Shown here piece after piece: positions 8,139-30,276 of a DNA stretch of 44,172 nucleotides. The first letter of the stretch is position 1, and each line of letters starts with the position of its first letter. Position numbers and translations under genes: made by a program. The DNA comes from Solirubrobacterales bacterium (GTDB lineage Bacteria > Actinomycetota > Thermoleophilia > Solirubrobacterales > 70-9), in assembly GCA_019456285.1 (NCBI GenBank), contig VRUE01000001.1:4354-48525 (forward strand), given 5' to 3'. Under the pieces are notes generated by a model. It saw only the letters and a program-made list of their open reading frames with translations, did no database searches and had not been told where the DNA came from.

Positions 8139-8714
8139 TTAACCCTGCTCGAACAGCTGCGGCGCCAGGTCCGCCAGCAACCCGACAGGCAACCCCACCA
8201 CGTTGGACACGCTCCCCTCGAGCCGCGCCACCAGCGTCGACCCAAGCGTCTGGATGGCATATCCGCCCGACCGCCCCCGCCACTCCCCAAACCGCACATA
8301 CCGCTCCATCGCGGCCTCGTCCAGGGCCTTGAACACCACGGTCGTCCGCTCCAGCCCACTCCGCTCCCCCTCCTCGGTGAGCACAACCAGCCCACTCAGC
8401 ACCTCATGCGCCCGCCCGGAGAGCAGCTCCAGGTACCGGCGGGCTTCCGCCTCGTCCTCGGGCTTCCCCAGCGCCCGACCATCGACGACCACATCTGTGT
8501 CACAGGCGATCACCAGGCGCCCCACGACGCCACCCGCCCGAGCTACCGCTTCAGCTACCGCAGCGGCCTTGCGCCGCGCGTTCTCCAGCACCTCGACCTC
8601 AGGATCGCCGCCACTCAGCTCCTCCATACCCGGCACAACGACCTCAAAGTCGATCCCCAGCTTCCGCAGAATCTCGCTCCTCTGCGGCGACCCGGATGCC
8701 AGGATGACGCTCAA
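8139..8714 (-). CDS. maf: Maf-family nucleoside triphosphate pyrophosphatase
   Basis: This 191-aa house-cleaning enzyme hydrolyses non-canonical or modified NTPs to NMP and pyrophosphate. The signature LASGSPQRSEIL is at residues 5-16, ENARRKAAAV at about 44, and VIACDTDVVVDGRALGKP at about 68-85, with the catalytic Asp in the ACDT segment. The start is TTG 8714. The gene lies between ndk and mreB, a common actinobacterial neighbourhood for maf. The codon use is somewhat less biased to terminal C/G than in its neighbours. Confidence 0.92.
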   Translation of the reverse strand: MSVILASGSPQRSEILRKLGIDFEVVVPGMEELSGGDPEVEVLENARRKAAAVAEAVARAGGVVGRLVIACDTDVVVDGRALGKPEDEAEARRYLELLSGRAHEVLSGLVVLTEEGERSGLERTTVVFKALDEAAMERYVRFGEWRGRSGGYAIQTLGSTLVARLEGSVSNVVGLPVGLLADLAPQLFEQG

Positions 8715-8722
8715 AGTCCTGA

Positions 8723-8834
8723 CCGGGGCGTGGGTGGGGGGCGAAACGTCTTGTACTTTTTCGCCAATCCGCTCGCGGACAGCCGACCACGCCCCACCGA
8801 AAAAGTTAAGTGGAGCCCCCCGCCCACGCCCCGG
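8723..8834. repeat. 112-bp nested inverted repeat between ndk and maf
   Basis: The outer arms ccggggcgtgggtggggggc (8723-8742) and its complement at 8815-8834 match at 19 of 20 positions. Inside, actttttcg at 8755-8763 pairs perfectly with cgaaaaagt at 8798-8806, with an adjoining ctt/aag extension. At the tip tccgc-tc-gcgga (8768-8779) forms a third hairpin. It fills almost the whole ndk-maf gap. It could be a large RNA structure, a processing or attenuation site, or a miniature inverted-repeat element. I saw no other copy in this window. Confidence 0.8.
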
Positions 8835-8842
8835 CCGCCGCG

Positions 8843-9250
8843 CTAACCCAACTCCGGGAACCAGATCCCGATCTCGCGCTCGGCCGACTCGTCAGAGTCG
8901 GACCCGTGGACCATGTTGAAGGTGATCTCGAGGGCGAAGTCGCCGCGGATCGAGCCCGGCGCCGCCTCGACCGGGTCGGTCGCACCGATCAGCTGGCGCG
9001 CGGCGGCGACCGCCTCGTGACCCTCCAGCACCATCGCGACCAGCGTGCCGCCGATGATGAAGGAGACCAGCTCGCCGAAGAATGGCTTCTCGGCGTGCTC
9101 GGCGTAGTGCCTGTTGGCGATCGGCTCGTCGGCCCGCATCGTCTTCAGCGCCGCGATGCGAAGCCCCTTGCGCTCGAAGCGGGCGATCACCTCGCCGCTC
9201 AGGGCGCGCTCGAAGGCGTCAGGCTTGACGAGGATCAGGGTCCGACTCAC
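8843..9250 (-). CDS. ndk: Nucleoside diphosphate kinase
   Basis: This 135-aa enzyme transfers phosphate from NTPs to NDPs through a phosphohistidine. [20 protein letters not shown] opens the fold and [16 protein letters not shown] holds the catalytic His. The length is typical. The longest ORF begins at 9412, but GTG at 9250 gives the family start ([12 protein letters not shown]) with AGGGAG 8 nt upstream, so I use it. The first 32 nt overlap the upstream zinc-ribbon gene in another frame. Confidence 0.96.
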
Positions 9251-23074: not shown

Positions 23075-23148
23075 GGTGAGCGACCGGATTCGAACCGGCG
23101 ACCGCCTGGACCACAACCAGGAGCTCTACCTGCTGAGCTACGCCCACC
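23075..23148 (-). tRNA. tRNA-His (GTG)
   Basis: The minus strand reads GTGGGCGTAGCTCAGCAGG onward and folds as a cloverleaf. It has a 7-bp acceptor, anticodon loop TTGTGGT with anticodon GTG, and T-arm GCCGGTTCGAATCCGGT. The extra G at -1 (position 23148) opposite discriminator C is the His identity element. No CCA is encoded. Confidence 0.96.
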
Positions 23149-23301
23149 ACGCAACTCCAATCTAGCGATACCGTTGGCAGGGATGCCCAGACGAGGCGCG
23201 ATCGCGTTCTTTCGGCCGGAGGCTCGTGCGGCGAGCGCGAGCGGCGCGCAGGCTCGGGGCGCGGTTGCGATCGGGGCGCCGGCGGTCGGCGCCGCGTGCG
23301 G
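23149..23301. other. Non-coding gap between tRNA-His and the DUF4395 gene
   Basis: This is about 150 bp of GC-rich sequence. I see no promoter for tRNA-His and no convincing ORF or terminator in it. Confidence 0.3.
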
Positions 23302-24006
23302 TCAGGGTGCGAGCCGCTCCAGCACGGTGCCGTCCGCCGCCACCGCGAAGACGGTCGGGACGACCGCGATCCCGTACTTGCGGGCGAGATCGGGACGGTC
23401 GCGGACGTCGAAGGTGACGAGCGGGTCCGACTCGGCGGCAAGGCGCCCTTCCCACTCCTGGCACTCGGAGCAGAGCGGGTGGGTGAACTCGACGAACGTG
23501 CGACGGTGCCCGTTGACGGCGCCGAGATCCGCCGGCTCGATATGGCTATGGCGCCCTGGCGAGATCCCGCGCAGCCGCGCACTCAGCTTGTAGATCTCGC
23601 AGCCGGTGCAGAAGCCGCTTGCCGCGGCAAGCAACGCCAGCGCCGCCACGATCGCGGCGAGAACCGTGCCGACCGTCGCGGATCCCAGCCACCAGGCAAG
23701 GGCGGCGGCGGTCAGCAAGGCGAAGCCCATCGCGTTGGCCAGGCGGGGAGGCCGCGAGTCCTCGAGCGGCCCCTCGCCGAAGCGAGGCTGGATCAGCGTG
23801 AAGTAGGCAACGCATGTGAGGCAGAGGCGGCGGCCCAGGGTCAACCCGACCAGCAGCTGCGCGCCCATCAGCGCCCAGGCGAGCGGCCAGCCGAAGAGGA
23901 CTCCCGCAAGCGCGACCGCTCCGACGACAAGCTGGTTGAAGCGCGGCGCTCGCGCGTCGATCACTTCCGTGTCCCGCCACGGGTCCGCTGTACGGGGCTT
24001 GCCCAT
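23302..24006 (-). CDS. DUF4395 membrane domain fused to a thioredoxin-like domain
   Basis: This is a 234-aa protein. Residues ~15-150 match DUF4395: paired helices, RLCLTCVAYF, and the family GFCTGCEIYK motif near 130. Residues ~160-234 form a thioredoxin-like domain with FVEFTHPLCSECQEW (CxxC-type active site CSEC) and the cis-Pro segment YGIAVVPTVFAV. Most DUF4395 proteins lack the fusion, which ties the family to thiol redox or sulfur transfer at the membrane (inference). ATG 24006 lies 6 nt after TAGACT. Confidence 0.83.
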   Translation of the reverse strand: MGKPRTADPWRDTEVIDARAPRFNQLVVGAVALAGVLFGWPLAWALMGAQLLVGLTLGRRLCLTCVAYFTLIQPRFGEGPLEDSRPPRLANAMGFALLTAAALAWWLGSATVGTVLAAIVAALALLAAASGFCTGCEIYKLSARLRGISPGRHSHIEPADLGAVNGHRRTFVEFTHPLCSECQEWEGRLAAESDPLVTFDVRDRPDLARKYGIAVVPTVFAVAADGTVLERLAP

Positions 24007-24012
24007 ACTTTG

Positions 24013-24018
24013 AGTCTA
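24013..24018 (-). promoter_or_regulatory. Putative -10 box (TAGACT) for the DUF4395-thioredoxin gene
   Basis: TAGACT is followed by only 6 nt and ATG 24006, which implies a leaderless mRNA. Confidence 0.55.
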
Positions 24019-24090
24019 GGGACCCGGGGTCGGCCGCCCGCGCCGCAGCGCTCGACCGGAGCGAGCCGTACCGCGACGCCAAATGCGGAA

Positions 24091-24163
24091 CGCCCCCGGC
24101 AGGATTCGAACCTGCGACCCACGGCTTAGAAGGCCGTCGCTCTGTCCACTGAGCTACGGGGGC
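24091..24163 (-). tRNA. tRNA-Arg (TCT)
   Basis: The minus strand GCCCCCGTAGCTCAGTGGAC folds with acceptor GCCCCCG/CGGGGGC. The anticodon stem ACGGC/GCCGT encloses CTTCTAA (anticodon TCT), and the T-arm is GCAGGTTCGAATCCTGC. It is 73 nt long with no encoded CCA. Confidence 0.96.
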
Positions 24164-24237
24164 AGCCCGCCTAGGTTAGGGCTCTGGCAAGCCGATTCGC
24201 ATAGCATCGCCCCCCGGTGCCGAGCAGCGGGCCGTCC

Positions 24238-26412
24238 TCAGCCGCCGCCCAGCTCGGCGCAGCCGGCGGGGTCGAGCTTGTCGTTGACCTCGAAGACGTA
24301 GTCCGGCTGGGGCACGATGTCGGGCTCGGCGATCAGCAGCTCCAGCGCCGGGTCGGTTTTCACCCAGGCGTAGACCGGGTACCAGTAGGGGGCGTCGGGG
24401 GAGTCCTGCGTGTACTGGCTGACGATCAGGTAGTCGTAGTCGCCGACGTTGACCTGGCGGCGGAACTGGCGACAGGTCGTGGCCAGCCGGTACTGGCCCT
24501 CCGGCCCCGGTACGCCGATGTACTGGACGTGGTTGGAGAGGTCACGGCCGTAGAAGCCATACTGGCCGAAGAAGATCTCGCCCGAGCCGGCGATCCCGAT
24601 CCGCTTGTCGTGCTGGTTGTGCGCGAACTCGTAGGCCTTCTGCGGACCGCCGTCCTGGAGGAAGAGGGTCGTGCGGGTGTAGTGGTGCTTCGCGTACTGC
24701 ACCTCCTGGGCGCGGCCGAGCACGACTGCGAGCAGGAGGATCGCGGCGAGCACCGCGGCGACGACCCCGCGGCTGACCCGCCGCCGCGCCCGAAGCAGCC
24801 CCAGGGCCGCCGGCGCCCAGACCAGCGCCAGCGTCAGGAAGACGGTGCCGACGATGAAGCCCGGGTACCAGCGTGGCGTGGTCAGCACCGTGATCGCGTA
24901 GAGCGCGGTGAGGAAGATCAGCGTCTGCCAGGCACGGCTGTCGGGGGCGCGCAGCGGACGGGCGACCGGCAGCAGCACCAGGGCCAGGACCAGCCCCGGC
25001 GTCAAGTACCTCGTGTTGGTGAAGAACCCGGTCGGCGAGCCCTCCTGGCCGGCCGCGGTCAGCGGCGTGACGATGTAGACGGCGGCGGTCAGCAGGGCGG
25101 CGGCGGCCAGCACCCGCAGGATCAGGTTGCGGGAGCGGAAGGCGATGTAGACCGCGGCGGCGACGGCCATCACCAGGATCAGCGGGAAGAGCGGGCCGAG
25201 CGCGTTCTCGAGCTGGGGGAAGAACCACTTGCGGTAGACGGCCGGCTCGAGGAGGTAGTCGGCGACGGCGAAGCGCGGTCGCGGGTCGAGCGGCATCTGG
25301 TCGGGGCGCGGCAGCCGCAGCGGCCCCCAGCCGATCTGCGGGATCGGGTTGCCGCCGGTGTGGATCGCCGCCCGCACGTACCAGTAGCCGCCGACCACGA
25401 AGGCGGGGATGCCGATCGCCGCGGCGGTCATCAGCCGGCGCCCGGCGCCGCTGACCAGGATCATCCCGACCGTGATCGCCCCGACCGGGACCAGGAAGGT
25501 GAGCTTCACCGAGGCGGCGAGCCCGGCGGCGATCCCCGCCAGCACCAGCGGCCCCCCGTCCAGCAGCGGCGCGTCGCGCTCCGGGACGTCCTGCACCGCC
25601 CCCGCCGCAGGCGCCCGGCGCTGGTGGCCGTTGATCAGGAAGGCGGCGAAGGCAATCAGGAAGGCGAGCCCCATGATGTCGTTGCGTCCCTCGCCCGGCT
25701 GGGTCTCGATCATCACCCCGGAGGCGAGGACCAGCGCCGCGGCGACCAGCGTCACCGGGCCGACCTTGTAGGGGCGGCCCATGCACCAGGCTGCGAGCAG
25801 CGCGATCGCCAGCCAGCCGAGGTTGATCAGCGGCGAGAGCCAGTCGCTCTGCATCAGGACGATGCCGGCGGCGTGGATCAGCTCCGAGCTCTGCGGGTAG
25901 AACCAGGCGGCCAGCCGCAGCGGGTCGGTGAAGTGCAGGTGGACGATCGAGCCCTCTTGGGCGATCCGCCCGGAGAAGGGCATGTGGTACCAGGTCGTGT
26001 CGCCGCCGAACATGCCCTGGTCGAGGCTGAGCTGCGACGGGAAGGTCCACTCGGCGACGGTGAAGGAGGCGACGCCGAGCGCGATCAGCAGGGCCAGCGT
26101 CTGCACCCGCGGCGCGGTGATCTCGCGGCCGTCGCGGGGCGCCATCTGCCAGCCCAGCAGCGCCGCGCCCAACCCGACCGCGATACAGCCGACGATCGTC
26201 CAGCCGAGGGTCAGGATGCTCAGCGTCCCCAGCAGCTGGAGCGCCAGGACCAGCAGCGCGGTGGCGATCGTCAGGTCGGCGAGGCGGGCGAGCGCGCCCG
26301 AGAACTCGGGCACGATCCAGCGCCGCAGCCAGTAGCCGCCGAGGCCGACCGCGGAGAGGATGCCGATCACCGCAAGGCAGCCGCCGATGTAGGAGCCGAG
26401 GGAAGGGATCAC
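24238..26412 (-). CDS. Large multi-spanning membrane protein, GT-C glycosyltransferase-like
   Basis: This 724-aa protein has roughly 13 or more hydrophobic segments up to about residue 590, then a soluble C-terminal part of about 130 residues. An extracellular loop after the third or fourth helix (FPSQLSLDQGMFGGDTTWYHMPFSGRIAQEGSIVHLHF) resembles the first loop of GT-C enzymes that use lipid-linked sugars, with an Asp in GGDTTW. I infer a membrane glycosyltransferase or related envelope enzyme; the substrate is unknown. GTG 26412 lies 9 nt after TAGCAT, a box whose first three bases are the msrA stop codon. Confidence 0.72.
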   Translation of the reverse strand: MIPSLGSYIGGCLAVIGILSAVGLGGYWLRRWIVPEFSGALARLADLTIATALLVLALQLLGTLSILTLGWTIVGCIAVGLGAALLGWQMAPRDGREITAPRVQTLALLIALGVASFTVAEWTFPSQLSLDQGMFGGDTTWYHMPFSGRIAQEGSIVHLHFTDPLRLAAWFYPQSSELIHAAGIVLMQSDWLSPLINLGWLAIALLAAWCMGRPYKVGPVTLVAAALVLASGVMIETQPGEGRNDIMGLAFLIAFAAFLINGHQRRAPAAGAVQDVPERDAPLLDGGPLVLAGIAAGLAASVKLTFLVPVGAITVGMILVSGAGRRLMTAAAIGIPAFVVGGYWYVRAAIHTGGNPIPQIGWGPLRLPRPDQMPLDPRPRFAVADYLLEPAVYRKWFFPQLENALGPLFPLILVMAVAAAVYIAFRSRNLILRVLAAAALLTAAVYIVTPLTAAGQEGSPTGFFTNTRYLTPGLVLALVLLPVARPLRAPDSRAWQTLIFLTALYAITVLTTPRWYPGFIVGTVFLTLALVWAPAALGLLRARRRVSRGVVAAVLAAILLLAVVLGRAQEVQYAKHHYTRTTLFLQDGGPQKAYEFAHNQHDKRIGIAGSGEIFFGQYGFYGRDLSNHVQYIGVPGPEGQYRLATTCRQFRRQVNVGDYDYLIVSQYTQDSPDAPYWYPVYAWVKTDPALELLIAEPDIVPQPDYVFEVNDKLDPAGCAELGGG

Positions 26413-26421
26413 CGGCGCGGG

Positions 26422-26427
26422 ATGCTA
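26422..26427 (-). promoter_or_regulatory. Putative -10 box (TAGCAT), overlaps msrA stop codon
   Basis: TAGCAT begins with the TAG stop of msrA and lies 9 nt before GTG 26412. The downstream gene may therefore be both read through from msrA and started separately. Confidence 0.5.
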
Positions 26428-27021
26428 ATCGGCGCGCCGGGTGAGCGAAGCGCTAGCGGCAACCGCCGGGACGCGGCAGGAGACCCCGGTGCCGGCCAGG
26501 CCGCAGTAGCCGTTCGGCGCCTTGTGCAGGTACTGCTGGTGGTAGTCCTCGGCGTAGTGGAAGGGGCCGGCGGACTCGATCTCGGTGGTGATCGGGGCGC
26601 GGCCGGCCGACCGCAGCGCCTCGTCGTAGGCGCGCCGCGCCGCCGCGGCAGTCGCCTTCTGGGCGTCGTTCGTGAAGTAGATGCCGGAGCGGTACTGGGT
26701 CCCGACGTCGTTGCCCTGGCGCATGCCCTGGGTCGGGTCGTGCCCCTCGAAGAAGACCCCGAGCAGGTCCGCGTAGGCGATCCGCGCCGGGTCGAAGGCG
26801 ACCAGCACCGCCTCGGCGTGCCCGGTCCGCCCACCGCAGACCTCCTCGTAGGTCGGGGTCGGCGTGACCCCGTTCATGTAACCGACCGCGGTGGTGCAGA
26901 CGCCGTCCAGCCCCCAGAACAACCGCTCGGCGCCCCAGAAGCAGCCGAGCGCGAAGTAGGCGGTCTCGATCCCGTCGGGGAAGGGCGGCTCCAGCGGAAC
27001 GTCAAGCACGGCGTGGTGCAC
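26425..27021 (-). CDS. msrA: Peptide methionine sulfoxide reductase MsrA
   Basis: This 198-aa enzyme reduces Met-S-sulfoxide in proteins using thioredoxin. The catalytic motif [11 protein letters not shown] is at about 26-36, and [35 protein letters not shown] and YHQQYL follow as in the family. C-terminal cysteines ([12 protein letters not shown]) can act as resolving residues. GTG 27021 lies 9 nt after TAGGCT. trxB lies 9 kb away. Confidence 0.95.
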
Positions 27022-27030
27022 GGAAAATAC

Positions 27031-27051
27031 AGCCTAACGCTGCGATAGCGT
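27031..27051. promoter_or_regulatory. Divergent -10 boxes for msrA and a small membrane gene
   Basis: TAGGCT on the minus strand (27036-27031) lies 9 nt before the msrA GTG. TAGCGT on the plus strand (27046-27051) lies 6 nt before codon ATC 27058 of the opposite gene. The intervening acgct...agcgt is an inverted repeat that a regulator could bind. Confidence 0.5.
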
Positions 27052-27057
27052 GGGCCA

Positions 27058-27333
27058 ATCGGCTGCCTCGCCCTTCTCTTTGCGCTGATCTCGCCGCGGC
27101 TGGCGCTGTTCGTGCTGTGGCTGTTCAGCGACCTGCTCAGCCGCCCCTTCGAGAGCTGGATCGTCCCGTTCCTGGGGTTCTTCCTGCTGCCCTGGACGAC
27201 CCTCGCCTACGTGGTGATGTGGAGCACTTCGGACGGCGTCGTCGGCTTCGAGTGGTTCGTCGTAGTCCTCGCCTTCCTCTTCGACCTGGGCTCCTACGCC
27301 CAGGGAGGCAGGCGGCGGACAGCGCAGAGCTAG
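27058..27333 (+). CDS. Small membrane protein (2-3 helices), start uncertain
   Basis: The track gives GTG 27112 (73 aa). The in-frame codons upstream continue a helix (GCLALLFALISPRLALFVLWLF) that resembles the N-terminus of a common actinobacterial small membrane protein family. They run back to a stop at 27046 with no ATG, GTG or TTG. ATC 27058, 6 nt after TAGCGT, is the position expected for a leaderless start; CTG 27085 or 27100 are alternatives. The body has further helices (WIVPFLGFFLLPWTTLAYVVMW; WFVVVLAFLFDLG) and a basic tail. The function is unknown. Confidence 0.65.
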   Translation: MGCLALLFALISPRLALFVLWLFSDLLSRPFESWIVPFLGFFLLPWTTLAYVVMWSTSDGVVGFEWFVVVLAFLFDLGSYAQGGRRRTAQS

Positions 27334-27355
27334 TGGTCCGTCCAGAGACAGGCCA

Positions 27356-27622
27356 CTAGGCTGCCTCGACCGGGAAGGCGATCCTCACATGGGCCTTGGA
27401 GACGACGATGAAGTCGCGTTTCTCGACCTCCCCACCTTCCAGCGGTTCGATCTCGGCATTGACGACCGGGGTGAAAGTTATGTCGACCCGGTTGAGCGAG
27501 TCGGAGAAACGGCCCTGATACCCCTCCGGCGGCAGCGTCACGTCACCGACGATCACCTGCCTGTCGGTTTCGAACTGGACCCGTTCGGTGCGGCGCTCGG
27601 TGTTGACTCCCGCCTCCATCAT
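27356..27622 (-). CDS. Small 88-aa beta-rich protein, DUF6812-like
   Basis: This ORF starts at ATG 27622 with GGAG about 7 nt upstream. The sequence (VQFETDRQVIVGDVTLPPEGYQGRFSDSLNR; KRDFIVVSKAHVRIAFPV) resembles a small actinobacterial family that I recall as DUF6812; the assignment is from memory. It is predicted soluble and beta-rich, without catalytic motifs. It is convergent with the small membrane gene, the stop codons being 22 nt apart. Confidence 0.68.
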   Translation of the reverse strand: MMEAGVNTERRTERVQFETDRQVIVGDVTLPPEGYQGRFSDSLNRVDITFTPVVNAEIEPLEGGEVEKRDFIVVSKAHVRIAFPVEAA

Positions 27623-27744
27623 GGATGCGCTCCATCGGCACTTCCCGCAGCGGGCACAATCGGATACCCGTCCAGCCGGCCATGACCTGCCTGCCGCCAG
27701 CCGCTCATGGCATCAAGGCTAGGGCCCTCAATCGGCCTAACCGG

Positions 27745-27758
27745 ACGGTATTTGAACC
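27745..27758. repeat. Left copy of 14-bp repeat flanking the ORF6N gene
   Basis: acggtatttgaacc is identical to 28415-28428, exactly 670 bp away, and the pair brackets the intact ORF6N gene. On the minus strand it reads as a tRNA T-loop (GGTTCAAAT), so it resembles an attachment-site remnant. Confidence 0.7.
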
Positions 27759-27761
27759 GAG

Positions 27762-28355
27762 TCAGGCGGCTGATCGAGACTTCGGCTTCTCCTCGTCGTC
27801 CTGAACCCTGAAGCCAACCGGCCTCTTTGGGCACGGTGGTGGCGCCATCAGCTGATGTAGAGCCTTGAAGATCTGATCCAGCTGCTCGTCGTGCTGATCG
27901 AGTCGTCCGACCATCTCCTTCTCCAAGTCCTCCAGCTGCCTTTCGAGGGCCGCATAGGAGCCAGCGACCCGCCGCAGCTCGACGAACGCCCGCATGATCT
28001 CGATGTTCACGGCAATCGCTCGATCACTGCGAAGGACGCCGGAGAGCATTGCCACGCCCTGCTCCGTGAAGACGTACGGCGCATAGCGGCGGCCGCCCCG
28101 ACCCTCGTTTGAGATCACAATTTGTGATCTCAAAGCTTCTGCCTCGGCTTTCGTCAGCTGGAACATGAAGTCCGCGGGGAAGCGCTTCGCGTTTCGTTTG
28201 ACCTGCTGCACCAGGACCCTGGTCTCAACGCCATAGAGGTCCGCCAGATCTTCGTCGAGCATCACCTGTCGCTCTCGCACAACCAGGATCCGCTTCTCGA
28301 TCGCGGGCGCCGCAACGATCTCAAGCGACGCCGTGTTCCCTACCGAATCTGCCAT
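27762..28355 (-). CDS. ORF6N-domain protein (phage antirepressor-like)
   Basis: In this 197-aa protein, residues ~15-120 form an ORF6N domain (EKRILVVRERQVMLDEDLADLYGVETRVLVQQVKRNAKRFPADFMFQLT; GGRRYAPYVFTEQGVAMLSGVLRS). This is a DNA-binding module found in phages and mobile elements. A coiled coil follows (ALERQLEDLEKEMVGRLDQHDEQLDQIFKAL), with a short tail KRPVGFRVQDDEEKPKSRS. The codon bias is weaker than in neighbours, suggesting transfer. It starts at ATG 28355, about 60 nt after a tRNA T-arm-like 14-bp repeat. A damaged paralogue lies at 29.1-29.5 kb. The physiological role is unknown. Confidence 0.9.
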   Translation of the reverse strand: MADSVGNTASLEIVAAPAIEKRILVVRERQVMLDEDLADLYGVETRVLVQQVKRNAKRFPADFMFQLTKAEAEALRSQIVISNEGRGGRRYAPYVFTEQGVAMLSGVLRSDRAIAVNIEIMRAFVELRRVAGSYAALERQLEDLEKEMVGRLDQHDEQLDQIFKALHQLMAPPPCPKRPVGFRVQDDEEKPKSRSAA

Positions 28356-28414
28356 CCACCCAGAATGGCAAACGAGCCGGATGCTTTTGTCTGCGAAATC
28401 GCCTTAGTAACTGA

Positions 28415-28428
28415 ACGGTATTTGAACC
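28415..28428. repeat. Right copy of 14-bp T-arm-like repeat
   Basis: acggtatttgaacc is identical to 27745-27758. The sequence from here to the ORF6N start aligns with the stretch between the tRNA-Pro T-arm and the second ORF6N copy (28 of 39 bases next to the ATGs). Confidence 0.7.
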
Positions 28429-28539
28429 AAGGCGTCGTCGCGCGAATCTGCGCGCTGCACAACAAACCCCCGGTCGCATAACAGCCCCCGGGCATGACGA
28501 AGACGGTGACAGCGCTGCGCTCGGCCTTCTCCCGGCGAG

Positions 28540-28965
28540 TTACAGATTGCGCACTCGACGACCGATGTCGCGATCCTGCGGATAGCCGGCGGACTCCCAG
28601 AACGCTCCAGCCGCCTCGTCCTCGAAAGCGACCAGGGCGGTTACTCGACGGACGCCACAGCCGCGCAGGTACTCCTCGCCAGCCCGGGTTAGCGTGATCC
28701 CAATGCCCTCTCGCCGGTGCCCTTCGCGAACTGCGAGCCGATACAGGTTCCCTCGCCAGCCGTCCCACGCGGCAATCATGGCGCCGACGATCTCGTCGTC
28801 TCGCTCGGCGACCAGGAGTGCAGCCGGAGAATCGGCGATCAGGCGCTCGACGTCAGCTATTCGGTCCGTCGTGCTTGCGTGTCCACTTCGCGCCTGAGCC
28901 CACAACTCCAATACCGAGCGCGCGTCCCGTGGGCGGCACCGACGTATGAAGATCCCCTCGTCAGT
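28540..28965 (-). CDS. GNAT-family N-acetyltransferase
   Basis: This acetyltransferase has about 141 aa from TTG 28965. The GNAT fold is visible: IFIRRCRPRDARSVLELW (beta1/alpha1), ALLVAERDDEIVGAMIAAWDGWRGNLYRLAV (beta4), and the acetyl-CoA loop REGHRREGIGITLTRAGEEYL (R-x-x-G-x-G/I type). The end AGAFWESAGYPQDRDIGRRVR is typical. The acceptor substrate is unknown. The track start at 29040 adds residues with no family similarity. CATACT lies 6 nt before TTG. It sits between the two ORF6N copies, so it may have moved with them. Confidence 0.85.
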   Translation of the reverse strand, partial: TDEGIFIRRCRPRDARSVLELWAQARSGHASTTDRIADVERLIADSPAALLVAERDDEIVGAMIAAWDGWRGNLYRLAVREGHRREGIGITLTRAGEEYLRGCGVRRVTALVAFEDEAAGAFWESAGYPQDRDIGRRVRNL

Positions 28966-29060
28966 CAAGCCCCAAGTATGGCGAAGGCGCAAGCTGGTGC
29001 GCTTCGGTGCTGTGGCCTGGGACACGGAGGGTCCCTGCAAGTCTGGGATGGCAGGAGTCG

Positions 29061-29484
29061 CCTATTCCTCGTCCTCAGGCACCCTGAATCCGATTGGACG
29101 CTTTGGTCGACGAACGCCCGCATGGTCTCGATGTTCACGGCGATGGCCCGCTTGCTCCGCAGGACCCCGGAAAGCATCGCCACCCCTTGCTCGGTGAAGA
29201 CATACGGGGCGTAGCGACGTCCGCCCCGGCCGGCGTTTGAGGTCGCAATCTGCGACCTCAAAGCTGCCGCCTCGGACCTATCCAGCTGAAACATGAAGTC
29301 CTCCGGGAAGCGCTCGAGGTTCCGTTTGACCTGCTCGATCAGGCGTTTCGTCTCCACGCCGTATAAGTCCGCCAGGTCTTCGTCGAGCATTGCCTGCCGC
29401 TCACGGACAACGAGGATCCTCTTCTCGATCGCCGGTGCGCGCAATCAACTCCAGCGACGCCTTCTTCCCTGCCGATTCGGCCAT
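29061..29484 (-). pseudogene. Second ORF6N gene, frameshifted and internally deleted
   Basis: ATG 29484 starts MAESAGKKASLELIA, parallel to the intact copy's MADSVGNTASLEIVA. An extra base in the GCGCGC run near 29445 shifts the frame. The ORF6N domain continues in the next frame (APAIEKRILVVRERQAMLDEDL...VNIETMRAFV). At about 29112 the ~50 codons of the coiled coil are missing, with another frame change. The old tail KRPIGFRVPEDEE and its stop are readable in the original-type frame and end at 29061. The track ORF 28965..29444 is a read-through of these lesions. Its position next to tRNA-Pro(GGG) mirrors the intact copy next to a T-arm remnant. Confidence 0.85.
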
Positions 29485-29524
29485 CCAGACAGGGTGCCAG
29501 ACGCGTCGGAAGCTATTGTCTACA

Positions 29525-29598
29525 TCGGGGCGACTGGATTTGAACCAGCGACCGCTCGGCCCCCAGCCGAGTGCGCTACCAGACTGCGCCACGCCCCG
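29525..29598 (-). tRNA. tRNA-Pro (GGG)
   Basis: The minus strand CGGGGCGTGGCGCAGTCTGG folds as a 74-nt cloverleaf. It has acceptor CGGGGCG/CGCCCCG, anticodon arm CTCGG-CTGGGGG-CCGAG (anticodon GGG), and T-arm GCTGGTTCAAATCCAGT. No CCA is encoded. The ORF6N pseudogene begins 41 nt downstream. Confidence 0.95.
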
Positions 29599-29757
29599 TG
29601 ATCGCTTGCATCTTGACGGATTCGAGCAGCGATCGTGAACGACGGGGGCGGGGGCCTTGTGCCGCGCCCTGACTGAGATTCGGGCAAACTGTCTTGCGCC
29701 GCGGGCCGCAAGCGGGAGGCGGCTCGCGCGACAGGCGGATCTCACATTTTTCCGCGG

Positions 29758-29792
29758 GGAGGCGGGCGCTCGACCTTCGAGCGACCGCCTCC
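29758..29792. terminator. Long hairpin between the tRNA-Pro genes, possible terminator
   Basis: ggaggcgggcgctcg and its complement pair at 14 of 15 positions around a 5-nt loop. No T-run follows on either strand, so termination is possible but unproven. Confidence 0.4.
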
Positions 29793-29890
29793 CTCTTCGC
29801 GCCCTACTCCTTGCCGCCGGGAATAAGCGTCAAGCTGCCGGGCAGGTCAGAACCATTCCCTGATTTTTGGCTCTACAAAGGGAAATCCGA

Positions 29891-29920
29891 TGGGCGCGGC
29901 TGGGCTCGAACCAGCGATCT
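29891..29920 (-). other. tRNA 3'-end fragment (T-arm plus acceptor strand)
   Basis: The minus strand shows a perfect T-arm GCTGGTTCGAGCCCAGC followed by CGCGCCC-A, the form of an acceptor 3' strand and discriminator. The 5' part of a tRNA is not found upstream. It closely resembles the tRNA-Pro(GGG) T-arm and looks like a remnant left by recombination at a tRNA 3' end. Confidence 0.6.
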
Positions 29921-30202
29921 AATTCAGGCTCGGCTGACGATTCGTCCTAGGGCGTAGGGTCGCGCTTACGGCTGTGGGATGCGTCCGATGTGCTGCCGAC
30001 AGGAATCGGCGCAAACAAATAACGGTAGGGCGAAGGCTGCGGGCGGCGGGAAGCGACCGGGAAAGTGCGTCACTCGACGGGGGCCGGGTGCATCACACTT
30101 GCATCACAGATTCCCCCGCAGCGCCCCGCATCGCCGCCCGTCGTGCCTGGCACGGTGCGGCTGTGCGGGGGGGTGCTAGGCAGGACGGGGGAATCTTGCC
30201 AA

Positions 30203-30276
30203 TCGGGGCGCCCGGATTCGAACCGGGGACCTCGGCCACCCAAAGGCCGCGCGCTACCAGGCTGCGCCACGCCCCG
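30203..30276 (-). tRNA. tRNA-Pro (TGG)
   Basis: The minus strand CGGGGCGTGGCGCAGCCTGG folds with acceptor CGGGGCG/CGCCCCG. The anticodon arm CGGCC-TTTGGGT-GGCCG gives anticodon TGG, and the T-arm is CCCGGTTCGAATCCGGG. It is 74 nt long with no encoded CCA. Confidence 0.96.

What the first reader, a model, noticed from the sequence alone, without database searches (positions are those of the whole stretch)
8723..8834. A 112-bp nested palindrome fills the ndk-maf gap
Outer 20-bp arms (19/20), an inner perfect 9-bp pair and a tip hairpin form a near-continuous stem. It is far larger than a terminator and lies inside a coupled operon. It could be a miniature inverted-repeat element, an RNase G/E processing site or a regulatory RNA structure controlling maf and mreB.
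Basis: seen in the sequence. Interest (0 to 1): 0.6.

Follow-up and report, generated by a model that had tools for sequence, protein, structure and literature searches.

The report
Dispersed stop-codon palindrome in Solirubrobacterales
The 112-bp hairpin between ndk and maf is one of about 19 copies in this uncultured soil actinobacterium of a previously unnamed palindromic repeat, which sits just behind stop codons or in-frame inside genes and whose arms change sequence freely yet always stay complementary; it looks like a RAYT-less relative in kind of REP and Rickettsia palindromic elements.

Summary
The palindrome is real: 20-bp arms (19/20) at 8723-8742/8815-8834, the only such inverted repeat in the window. 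It is not unique. A covariance model finds about 19 places in the host genome and about 99 copies examined in nine genomes, confined to two genera of one Solirubrobacterales family. The core (CTYAAC...GTACAAG) is 91% identical between own-genome copies. The outer arms are only 54% identical, like the loop (55%), yet 96% Watson-Crick paired, with 20 of 34 pairs doubly changed. G.U (18) does not exceed A.C (25), unlike tRNAs (7:0), so symmetry is probably kept at DNA level. 59 of 99 copies lie in sense orientation at a stop codon; some lie in-frame inside ORFs. The ndk-maf site is filled in three species, holds another palindrome family in a fourth, and is nearly gapless in seven. No Y1 transposase was found in carriers. 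Best reading: a REP/RPE-like non-autonomous palindromic repeat, new family. RNA processing is unsupported but untested.

The parts
8723..8834 (-). whole palindromic element, forward orientation (CTTAAC...GTACAAG) on the minus strand, i.e. same sense as ndk and maf
   Evidence: CM match 8724-8837 minus, 120.6 bits
8815..8834 (-). 5' outer arm (transcript sense), CCGGGGCGTGGGCGGGGGGC; sequence differs between copies, complementarity kept
   Evidence: both-sided changes in 17 of 19 outer pairs
8723..8742 (-). 3' outer arm, GCCCCCCACCCACGCCCCGG
8798..8810 (-). conserved 5' motif CTTAAC plus inner stem (minus strand CTTAACTTTTTCG)
   Evidence: near-invariant columns in A2; pattern confined to Solirubrobacterales apart from a few isolated hits
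8750..8763 (-). inner stem plus conserved 3' motif (minus strand CGAAAAAGTACAAG); asymmetric to CTTAAC, so an internal loop remains
8764..8797 (-). variable terminal loop region, partly foldable
   Evidence: 55% mean identity among the 11 own-genome copies
8843..9250 (-). ndk; stop codon TAG at 8843-8845, 8 nt upstream of the stem
   Evidence: orthologues 75-93% identical in 24 genomes
8139..8714 (-). maf (septum formation/nucleotide pyrophosphatase family by name), TTG start 8 nt after the stem; AGGA at 8717-8720 could be its ribosome-binding site
   Evidence: sequence; RBS role inferred

Best explanation
It is a copy of a non-autonomous dispersed palindromic DNA repeat, working like REP/REPIN and Rickettsia palindromic elements. 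Shown: many copies; lineage restriction; sense-oriented location at stop codons or in-frame inside genes; perfectly pairing but freely diverging arms; invariant asymmetric internal loop; near-gapless relatives at ndk-maf. Inferred: copies spread as single-stranded DNA hairpins recognised through the asymmetric CTYAAC/GTACAAG loop by an enzyme supplied in trans (not found), and the arms are kept symmetric at DNA level, by hairpin-templated copying or template switching, or by selection for the DNA hairpin. At ndk-maf it most likely is a tolerated insertion which, transcribed, puts a very stable hairpin 8 nt behind the ndk stop and 8 nt before the maf start, so that it may hinder ribosome release on ndk and breaks the close ndk-maf spacing of relatives. 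A specific regulatory role for maf/mreB is not needed.
For: About 19 places in the own genome; up to 29 matches at E<=0.1 in relatives, some counted on both strands; only genera g1 and g11 among 232 genomes of the order; hits in 84,980 genomes almost all Solirubrobacterales/Thermoleophilia MAGs, none in IMG/VR. 20 of 34 pairs changed on both sides, covariation 0.408 against 0.114 shuffled. Arms 54%, loop 55%, motifs 91% identical. 1576 Watson-Crick pairs, isolated mismatches G.T 18 and A.C 25 against tRNA 7:0, p=0.0096. 59/99 copies with a sense stop within -35..+20 nt, 15 with an antisense one, p=4e-11; sense distances peak at -7..+16 while next-gene distances are broad. In-frame copies in a glycosyltransferase and a two-domain ABC ATPase sit in linkers absent or variable in orthologues. 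ndk-maf gap about 0-22 nt in seven relatives. Published REPs also lie <20 bp behind ORF 3' ends, supply stop codons and occur inside ORFs, and CGTC REPs lack a transposase (PMC3733652).
Against: No mobilising enzyme identified (PF01797 absent in carriers). No GTAG/CGTC-tagged 20-40 bp unit. No target-site duplication demonstrated. About 15 orthologous sites are shared between species, some between genera, which could also mean conserved function rather than inert DNA. The wobble test rests on 43 mismatches and only 10 tRNAs. Gene calls come from a simple home-made caller.
Confidence: 0.74

Rival explanations
1. A functional 3'-UTR RNA element: the hairpin acts in the transcript (mRNA 3'-end protection, ribosome stalling, RNase processing) and is kept by selection on RNA pairing.
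For: Sense orientation and tight spacing behind stop codons; strong covariation; orthologous retention at ndk, ABC ATPase, clpP, glnA and others. E. coli REPs within 15 nt of a stop codon are reported to stall ribosomes (PMC12306157).
Against: No G.U excess over A.C although tRNAs of the same genomes show it; copies also inside ORFs in both orientations; no Rfam match; upstream genes functionally unrelated.
Confidence: 0.14
2. A bidirectional factor-independent terminator that ends ndk transcription.
For: Very stable GC-rich stem directly behind a stop codon; frequent between convergent genes, sometimes one copy per gene.
Against: No U-tract after the stem (sequence); conserved internal motifs are not needed for termination; in this window it sits between two close co-directional genes of the ndk-maf-mreB cluster, and copies occur inside ORFs.
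Confidence: 0.08
3. The element inserted into pre-existing palindromes (terminators or other repeats), which explains the different arms.
For: Arms differ between copies while the core is conserved; another palindrome family occupies the same spot in G001.
Against: Relatives lacking it have no palindrome and almost no gap at ndk-maf; arms share a graded consensus (GATCCCGGTAGGGG in G001), so they look diverged rather than foreign.
Confidence: 0.05

Closest known systems
REP sequences / REPINs (GTAG- and CGTC-tagged, RAYT-associated)
   Same: Dispersed palindromes, often in inverted pairs, lying <20 bp behind ORF 3' ends, sometimes supplying the stop codon, sometimes inside ORFs (PMC3733652); REPINs are hairpin doublets proposed as the mobile unit (PMC3116915)
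   Different: One 112-bp hairpin with 20-bp divergent arms and a conserved asymmetric internal loop; no tagged 20-40 bp REP unit recognised; no Y1 transposase in carrier genomes
Rickettsia palindromic elements (RPE)
   Same: Long palindromes inserted in-frame in unrelated protein genes (described in PMC3733652 and its references; here)
   Different: Different phylum; most copies here are behind stop codons, not inside ORFs; no sequence comparison with RPEs was made
Coding palindromes of Nematomorpha mitochondria
   Same: Inverted-repeat arms stay perfectly matched while sequence changes; template switching is proposed there (PMC6649704)
   Different: Those are not a dispersed repeat family and are not inserted elements
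ERIC / MITE-type imperfect palindromes (from general knowledge)
   Same: Size of about 100-130 bp, long palindrome, transcribed intergenic regions
   Different: Arms here are not conserved in sequence; no parent insertion sequence or target duplication found

Membership tests
REP/REPIN | many dispersed palindromic copies in one genome, mostly extragenic | tested here: met
REP/REPIN | location close behind ORF 3' ends | tested here: met
REP/REPIN | GTAG or CGTC tag at the foot of a 20-40 bp palindrome | tested here: not met
   by inspection of 99 copies: GTAG occurs inside many type-1 arms, CGTC inside the internal loop of types 1 and 3, neither at the foot of a short REP; the window copy has no GTAG in its arms
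REP/REPIN | a RAYT (Y1 transposase, PF01797) in the genome | tested here: not met
   0 of 9 carrier genomes; control rings in E. coli; genomes are draft MAGs
Rickettsia palindromic element | in-frame insertion in ORFs at tolerated positions | tested here: met
Rickettsia palindromic element | sequence homology to RPE-1..RPE-10 | not tested
   no RPE sequences were compared; the core pattern gave no Rickettsia hit
MITE | target-site duplication and parent transposon with the same ends | tested here: inconclusive
   near-gapless orthologous sites too diverged to define the junction; no transposase found between inverted copies that were inspected
integron attC site | R'' RYYYAAC paired with R' GTTRRRY at the base of the hairpin | tested here: not met
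   RCTTAAC is present, but the partner is GTACAAG, and both lie inside, not at the base
intrinsic terminator | short GC-rich stem followed by a U-tract | tested here: not met
   no T-run follows either arm in the window
known RNA family | match to an Rfam model at gathering score | tested here: not met
   only four tRNAs in the window

The most novel reading that the evidence does not exclude
These genomes carry a RAYT-independent hairpin-DNA transposition system that targets gene 3' ends (stop codons) in sense orientation and rewrites or actively re-symmetrises the outer arms, so that several unrelated palindrome families (A and B) use the same landing places.
Probability: 0.2. Interest if true: 0.75.

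Novelty: new variant of a known kind. Interest (0 to 1): 0.5.

Why it matters
It adds an uncultured actinobacterial lineage to the bacteria known to carry REP/RPE-like palindromes that reach into proteins, without the usual RAYT transposase. The freely diverging but Watson-Crick-perfect arms offer a clean comparative test of how palindromes are kept symmetric (DNA template switching or hairpin intermediates versus RNA selection), and the fixed position behind stop codons makes the old question of what such repeats do to translation and operon coupling directly testable.

Tried and rejected
Insertion into a pre-existing terminator (relatives have no palindrome there). RAYT mobilisation. Inverted pairs as ends of an autonomous transposon: most pairs read out are about 190-440 bp apart, with no room for a transposase, and a pair 3.4 kb apart in G026 encloses housekeeping-type genes. 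integron attC (motif partner wrong). Rfam families. Viral origin (no IMG/VR match to the exact core pattern). TAG-specific target: TAG 38/77 near copies against 93/238 elsewhere, not convincing. Strand-specific wobble: a first count on the model-fitted alignment suggested more A.C than G.U; the stricter count shows no significant bias. Automatic stem-base detection by folding flanks over-extended the stem and was replaced by model coordinates. Literature search for palindromic repeats in Solirubrobacterales found nothing relevant.

Full report
Observation. The window shows ndk (8843-9250, minus), a gap of 128 nt and maf (8139-8714, minus) upstream of mreB, with mreC/mreD/penicillin-binding-protein genes following (gene names from my reading of the translations). 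Inside the gap lies an inverted repeat with 20-nt arms, 19/20 complementary, unique in the window at this quality and expected 0.017 times by chance. Both strands fold far better than shuffles.

Copies. A DNA search of the window's own genome (2.1 Mb draft, 146 contigs) gave 12 strong places including the window copy. Aligned in one orientation, they share TTCCRCTTAACTTTTTCGG ... CCGAAAAAGTACAAGACGCTYCA, while the outer arms differ between copies but pair within each copy. A covariance model built from 11 copies has 20 of 34 pairs with changes on both sides, none of 500 shuffles reaching any measure, and slid versions far lower. With that model there are about 19 places in the own genome, 13-29 matches (E<=0.1, some counted on both strands) in two genomes of the same genus and 1-15 in six of a sister genus, and none in the other 52 relatives. 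In 232 genomes of the order, only those two genera match at 1e-7. An exact core pattern over 84,980 species genomes hits almost only Solirubrobacterales/Thermoleophilia MAGs, plus a few isolated hits elsewhere that were not examined; IMG/VR gave none.

Anatomy. From the base inward: outer stem of about 19-24 bp, variable; an asymmetric internal loop whose two sides, CTYAAC and GTACAAG(A/C)C, hardly vary; an inner A/T-rich stem of 9-10 bp (replaced by other pairing sequences in G031, e.g. AACCCT/AGGGT); a variable loop. Sub-types: type 1 (CTTAAC with AAGACG), type 2 (CTCAAC with AAGCCG, arms such as GGAGGGGTCGGGTGCCCCTCC that are themselves palindromic), and type 3 (GCTGGGTTTTTCGCC...GGCGAAAAACAGGACGCC). 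Among the own-genome copies the motifs are 91% identical, the outer arms 54% and the loop 55%: the arms are as free in sequence as the loop, but bound to pair.

DNA or RNA. In 81 copies with recognisable motifs, the outer arms give 1576 Watson-Crick pairs; single mismatches flanked by good pairs are G.T 18 and A.C 25. In RNA kept by selection, G.U should exceed A.C on the transcribed strand; in 10 tRNAs found in the loci held (from this and related genomes) it is 7 to 0 (Fisher p=0.0096). The symmetry is therefore more likely maintained on DNA, by copying between arms (template switching, hairpin intermediates) or by selection for a DNA hairpin. The persistence of the asymmetric internal loop in the face of such symmetrisation suggests that the loop itself is selected, most simply as a recognition site of a mobilising enzyme (inference).

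Position. With a simple codon-usage gene caller, 59 of 99 copies have a sense stop codon within -35..+20 nt of the element's 5' end, 15 an antisense one, 12 both. Sense distances cluster at -7..+16; distances to the following gene range from about 0 to several hundred nt. Classes at -19 and -32 are genes whose stop is read from the element itself (TAG in GGTAGGGG, TAA in CTTAAC). Convergent genes sometimes each have their own inward-pointing copy. Other copies lie inside ORFs without breaking the frame: a glycosyltransferase, a two-domain ABC ATPase, membrane proteins. Alignment with orthologues shows the glycosyltransferase copy as an extra stretch of about 40 residues absent from eight sister-genus orthologues (G002 has an unrelated-looking insert there), and the ABC copy in a linker of variable length, filled in G000, G001 and G019.

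The ndk-maf site. Seven sister-genus relatives have ndk and maf nearly touching (motif-to-stop distances -4 to +22 nt) and no palindrome. G002 and G023 carry the element there, G002 with an extra half element behind it; G001 has a different palindrome (family B, CACGGTTTTGG...CCAAAACCGTG) 6 nt behind the ndk stop, itself one of more than 20 matches in G001. Orthologous copies have quite different arms, each fully or nearly fully paired, e.g. CCGGGGCGTGGGCGGGGGGC (G000), CCCGGGATATGGGCGGGGGC (G002), GGGACCGGATAGGCCC (G023). About 15 site groups share flanking genes between species; that several orthologous sets share a sub-type (all three ABC copies are type 2) suggests descent from old insertions rather than repeated new ones, but repeated insertion is not excluded.

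Mechanism. Best supported: a non-autonomous palindromic repeat in the manner of REP/REPIN and RPE, old and partly still spreading. The reported behaviour of REPs (next to ORF 3' ends, supplying stop codons, inside ORFs; CGTC REPs without transposase; PMC3733652) agrees closely. What differs is the large single hairpin with free arms and fixed asymmetric loop, and the absence of PF01797 transposases in all nine carriers tested. Locally the hairpin lies 8 nt behind the ndk stop and 8 nt before the maf start. By analogy with E. coli REPs within 15 nt of stop codons, reported to stall ribosomes (PMC12306157), it may lower ndk output and uncouple maf; this is inference.

Limits. All genomes are drafts from metagenomes; gene calls are my own; empty sites are from different species, so insertion boundaries and target duplications could not be fixed; no transcript data were available.

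Noticed in passing
L181 (G001:C169:6162-6270) and one search list; also G033, G002: A second, different palindromic repeat family (GGGCCGGCGGGTCCTGTCACGGTTTTGG...CCAAAACCGTGCCACCC) with more than 20 matches in G001; its ndk-maf copy lies 6 nt behind the ndk stop.
   Followed up: partly
L031-L059, types 2 and 3 (e.g. G000:C107:9396, C70:57036, C100:5053): Divergent sub-types of the element; type 2 arms are palindromes in themselves, type 3 has GCTGGGTTTTTCGCC instead of CTTAAC. In C70, 20-nt family-B fragments lie directly beside a type-3 copy.
   Followed up: partly
L143 (G002:C28:61443-61640): Behind the complete element between ndk and maf lies a half element (GGCGAAAAAGTGCAAGACGCTCCACCCCC), a decayed second copy.
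   Followed up: no
L090, L091, L171 (G031:C74, C45, C94): Inverted pairs about 360-420 bp long end to end; the two C74 pairs share a similar spacer, as if the pair moved as one composite unit.
   Followed up: partly
G000:C42:53461-53574 (outside the window, same contig): A copy in antisense orientation, in-frame in a glycosyltransferase gene, adds about 40 residues.
   Followed up: yes
window 23075-30276: Four tRNA genes on the minus strand.
   Followed up: no
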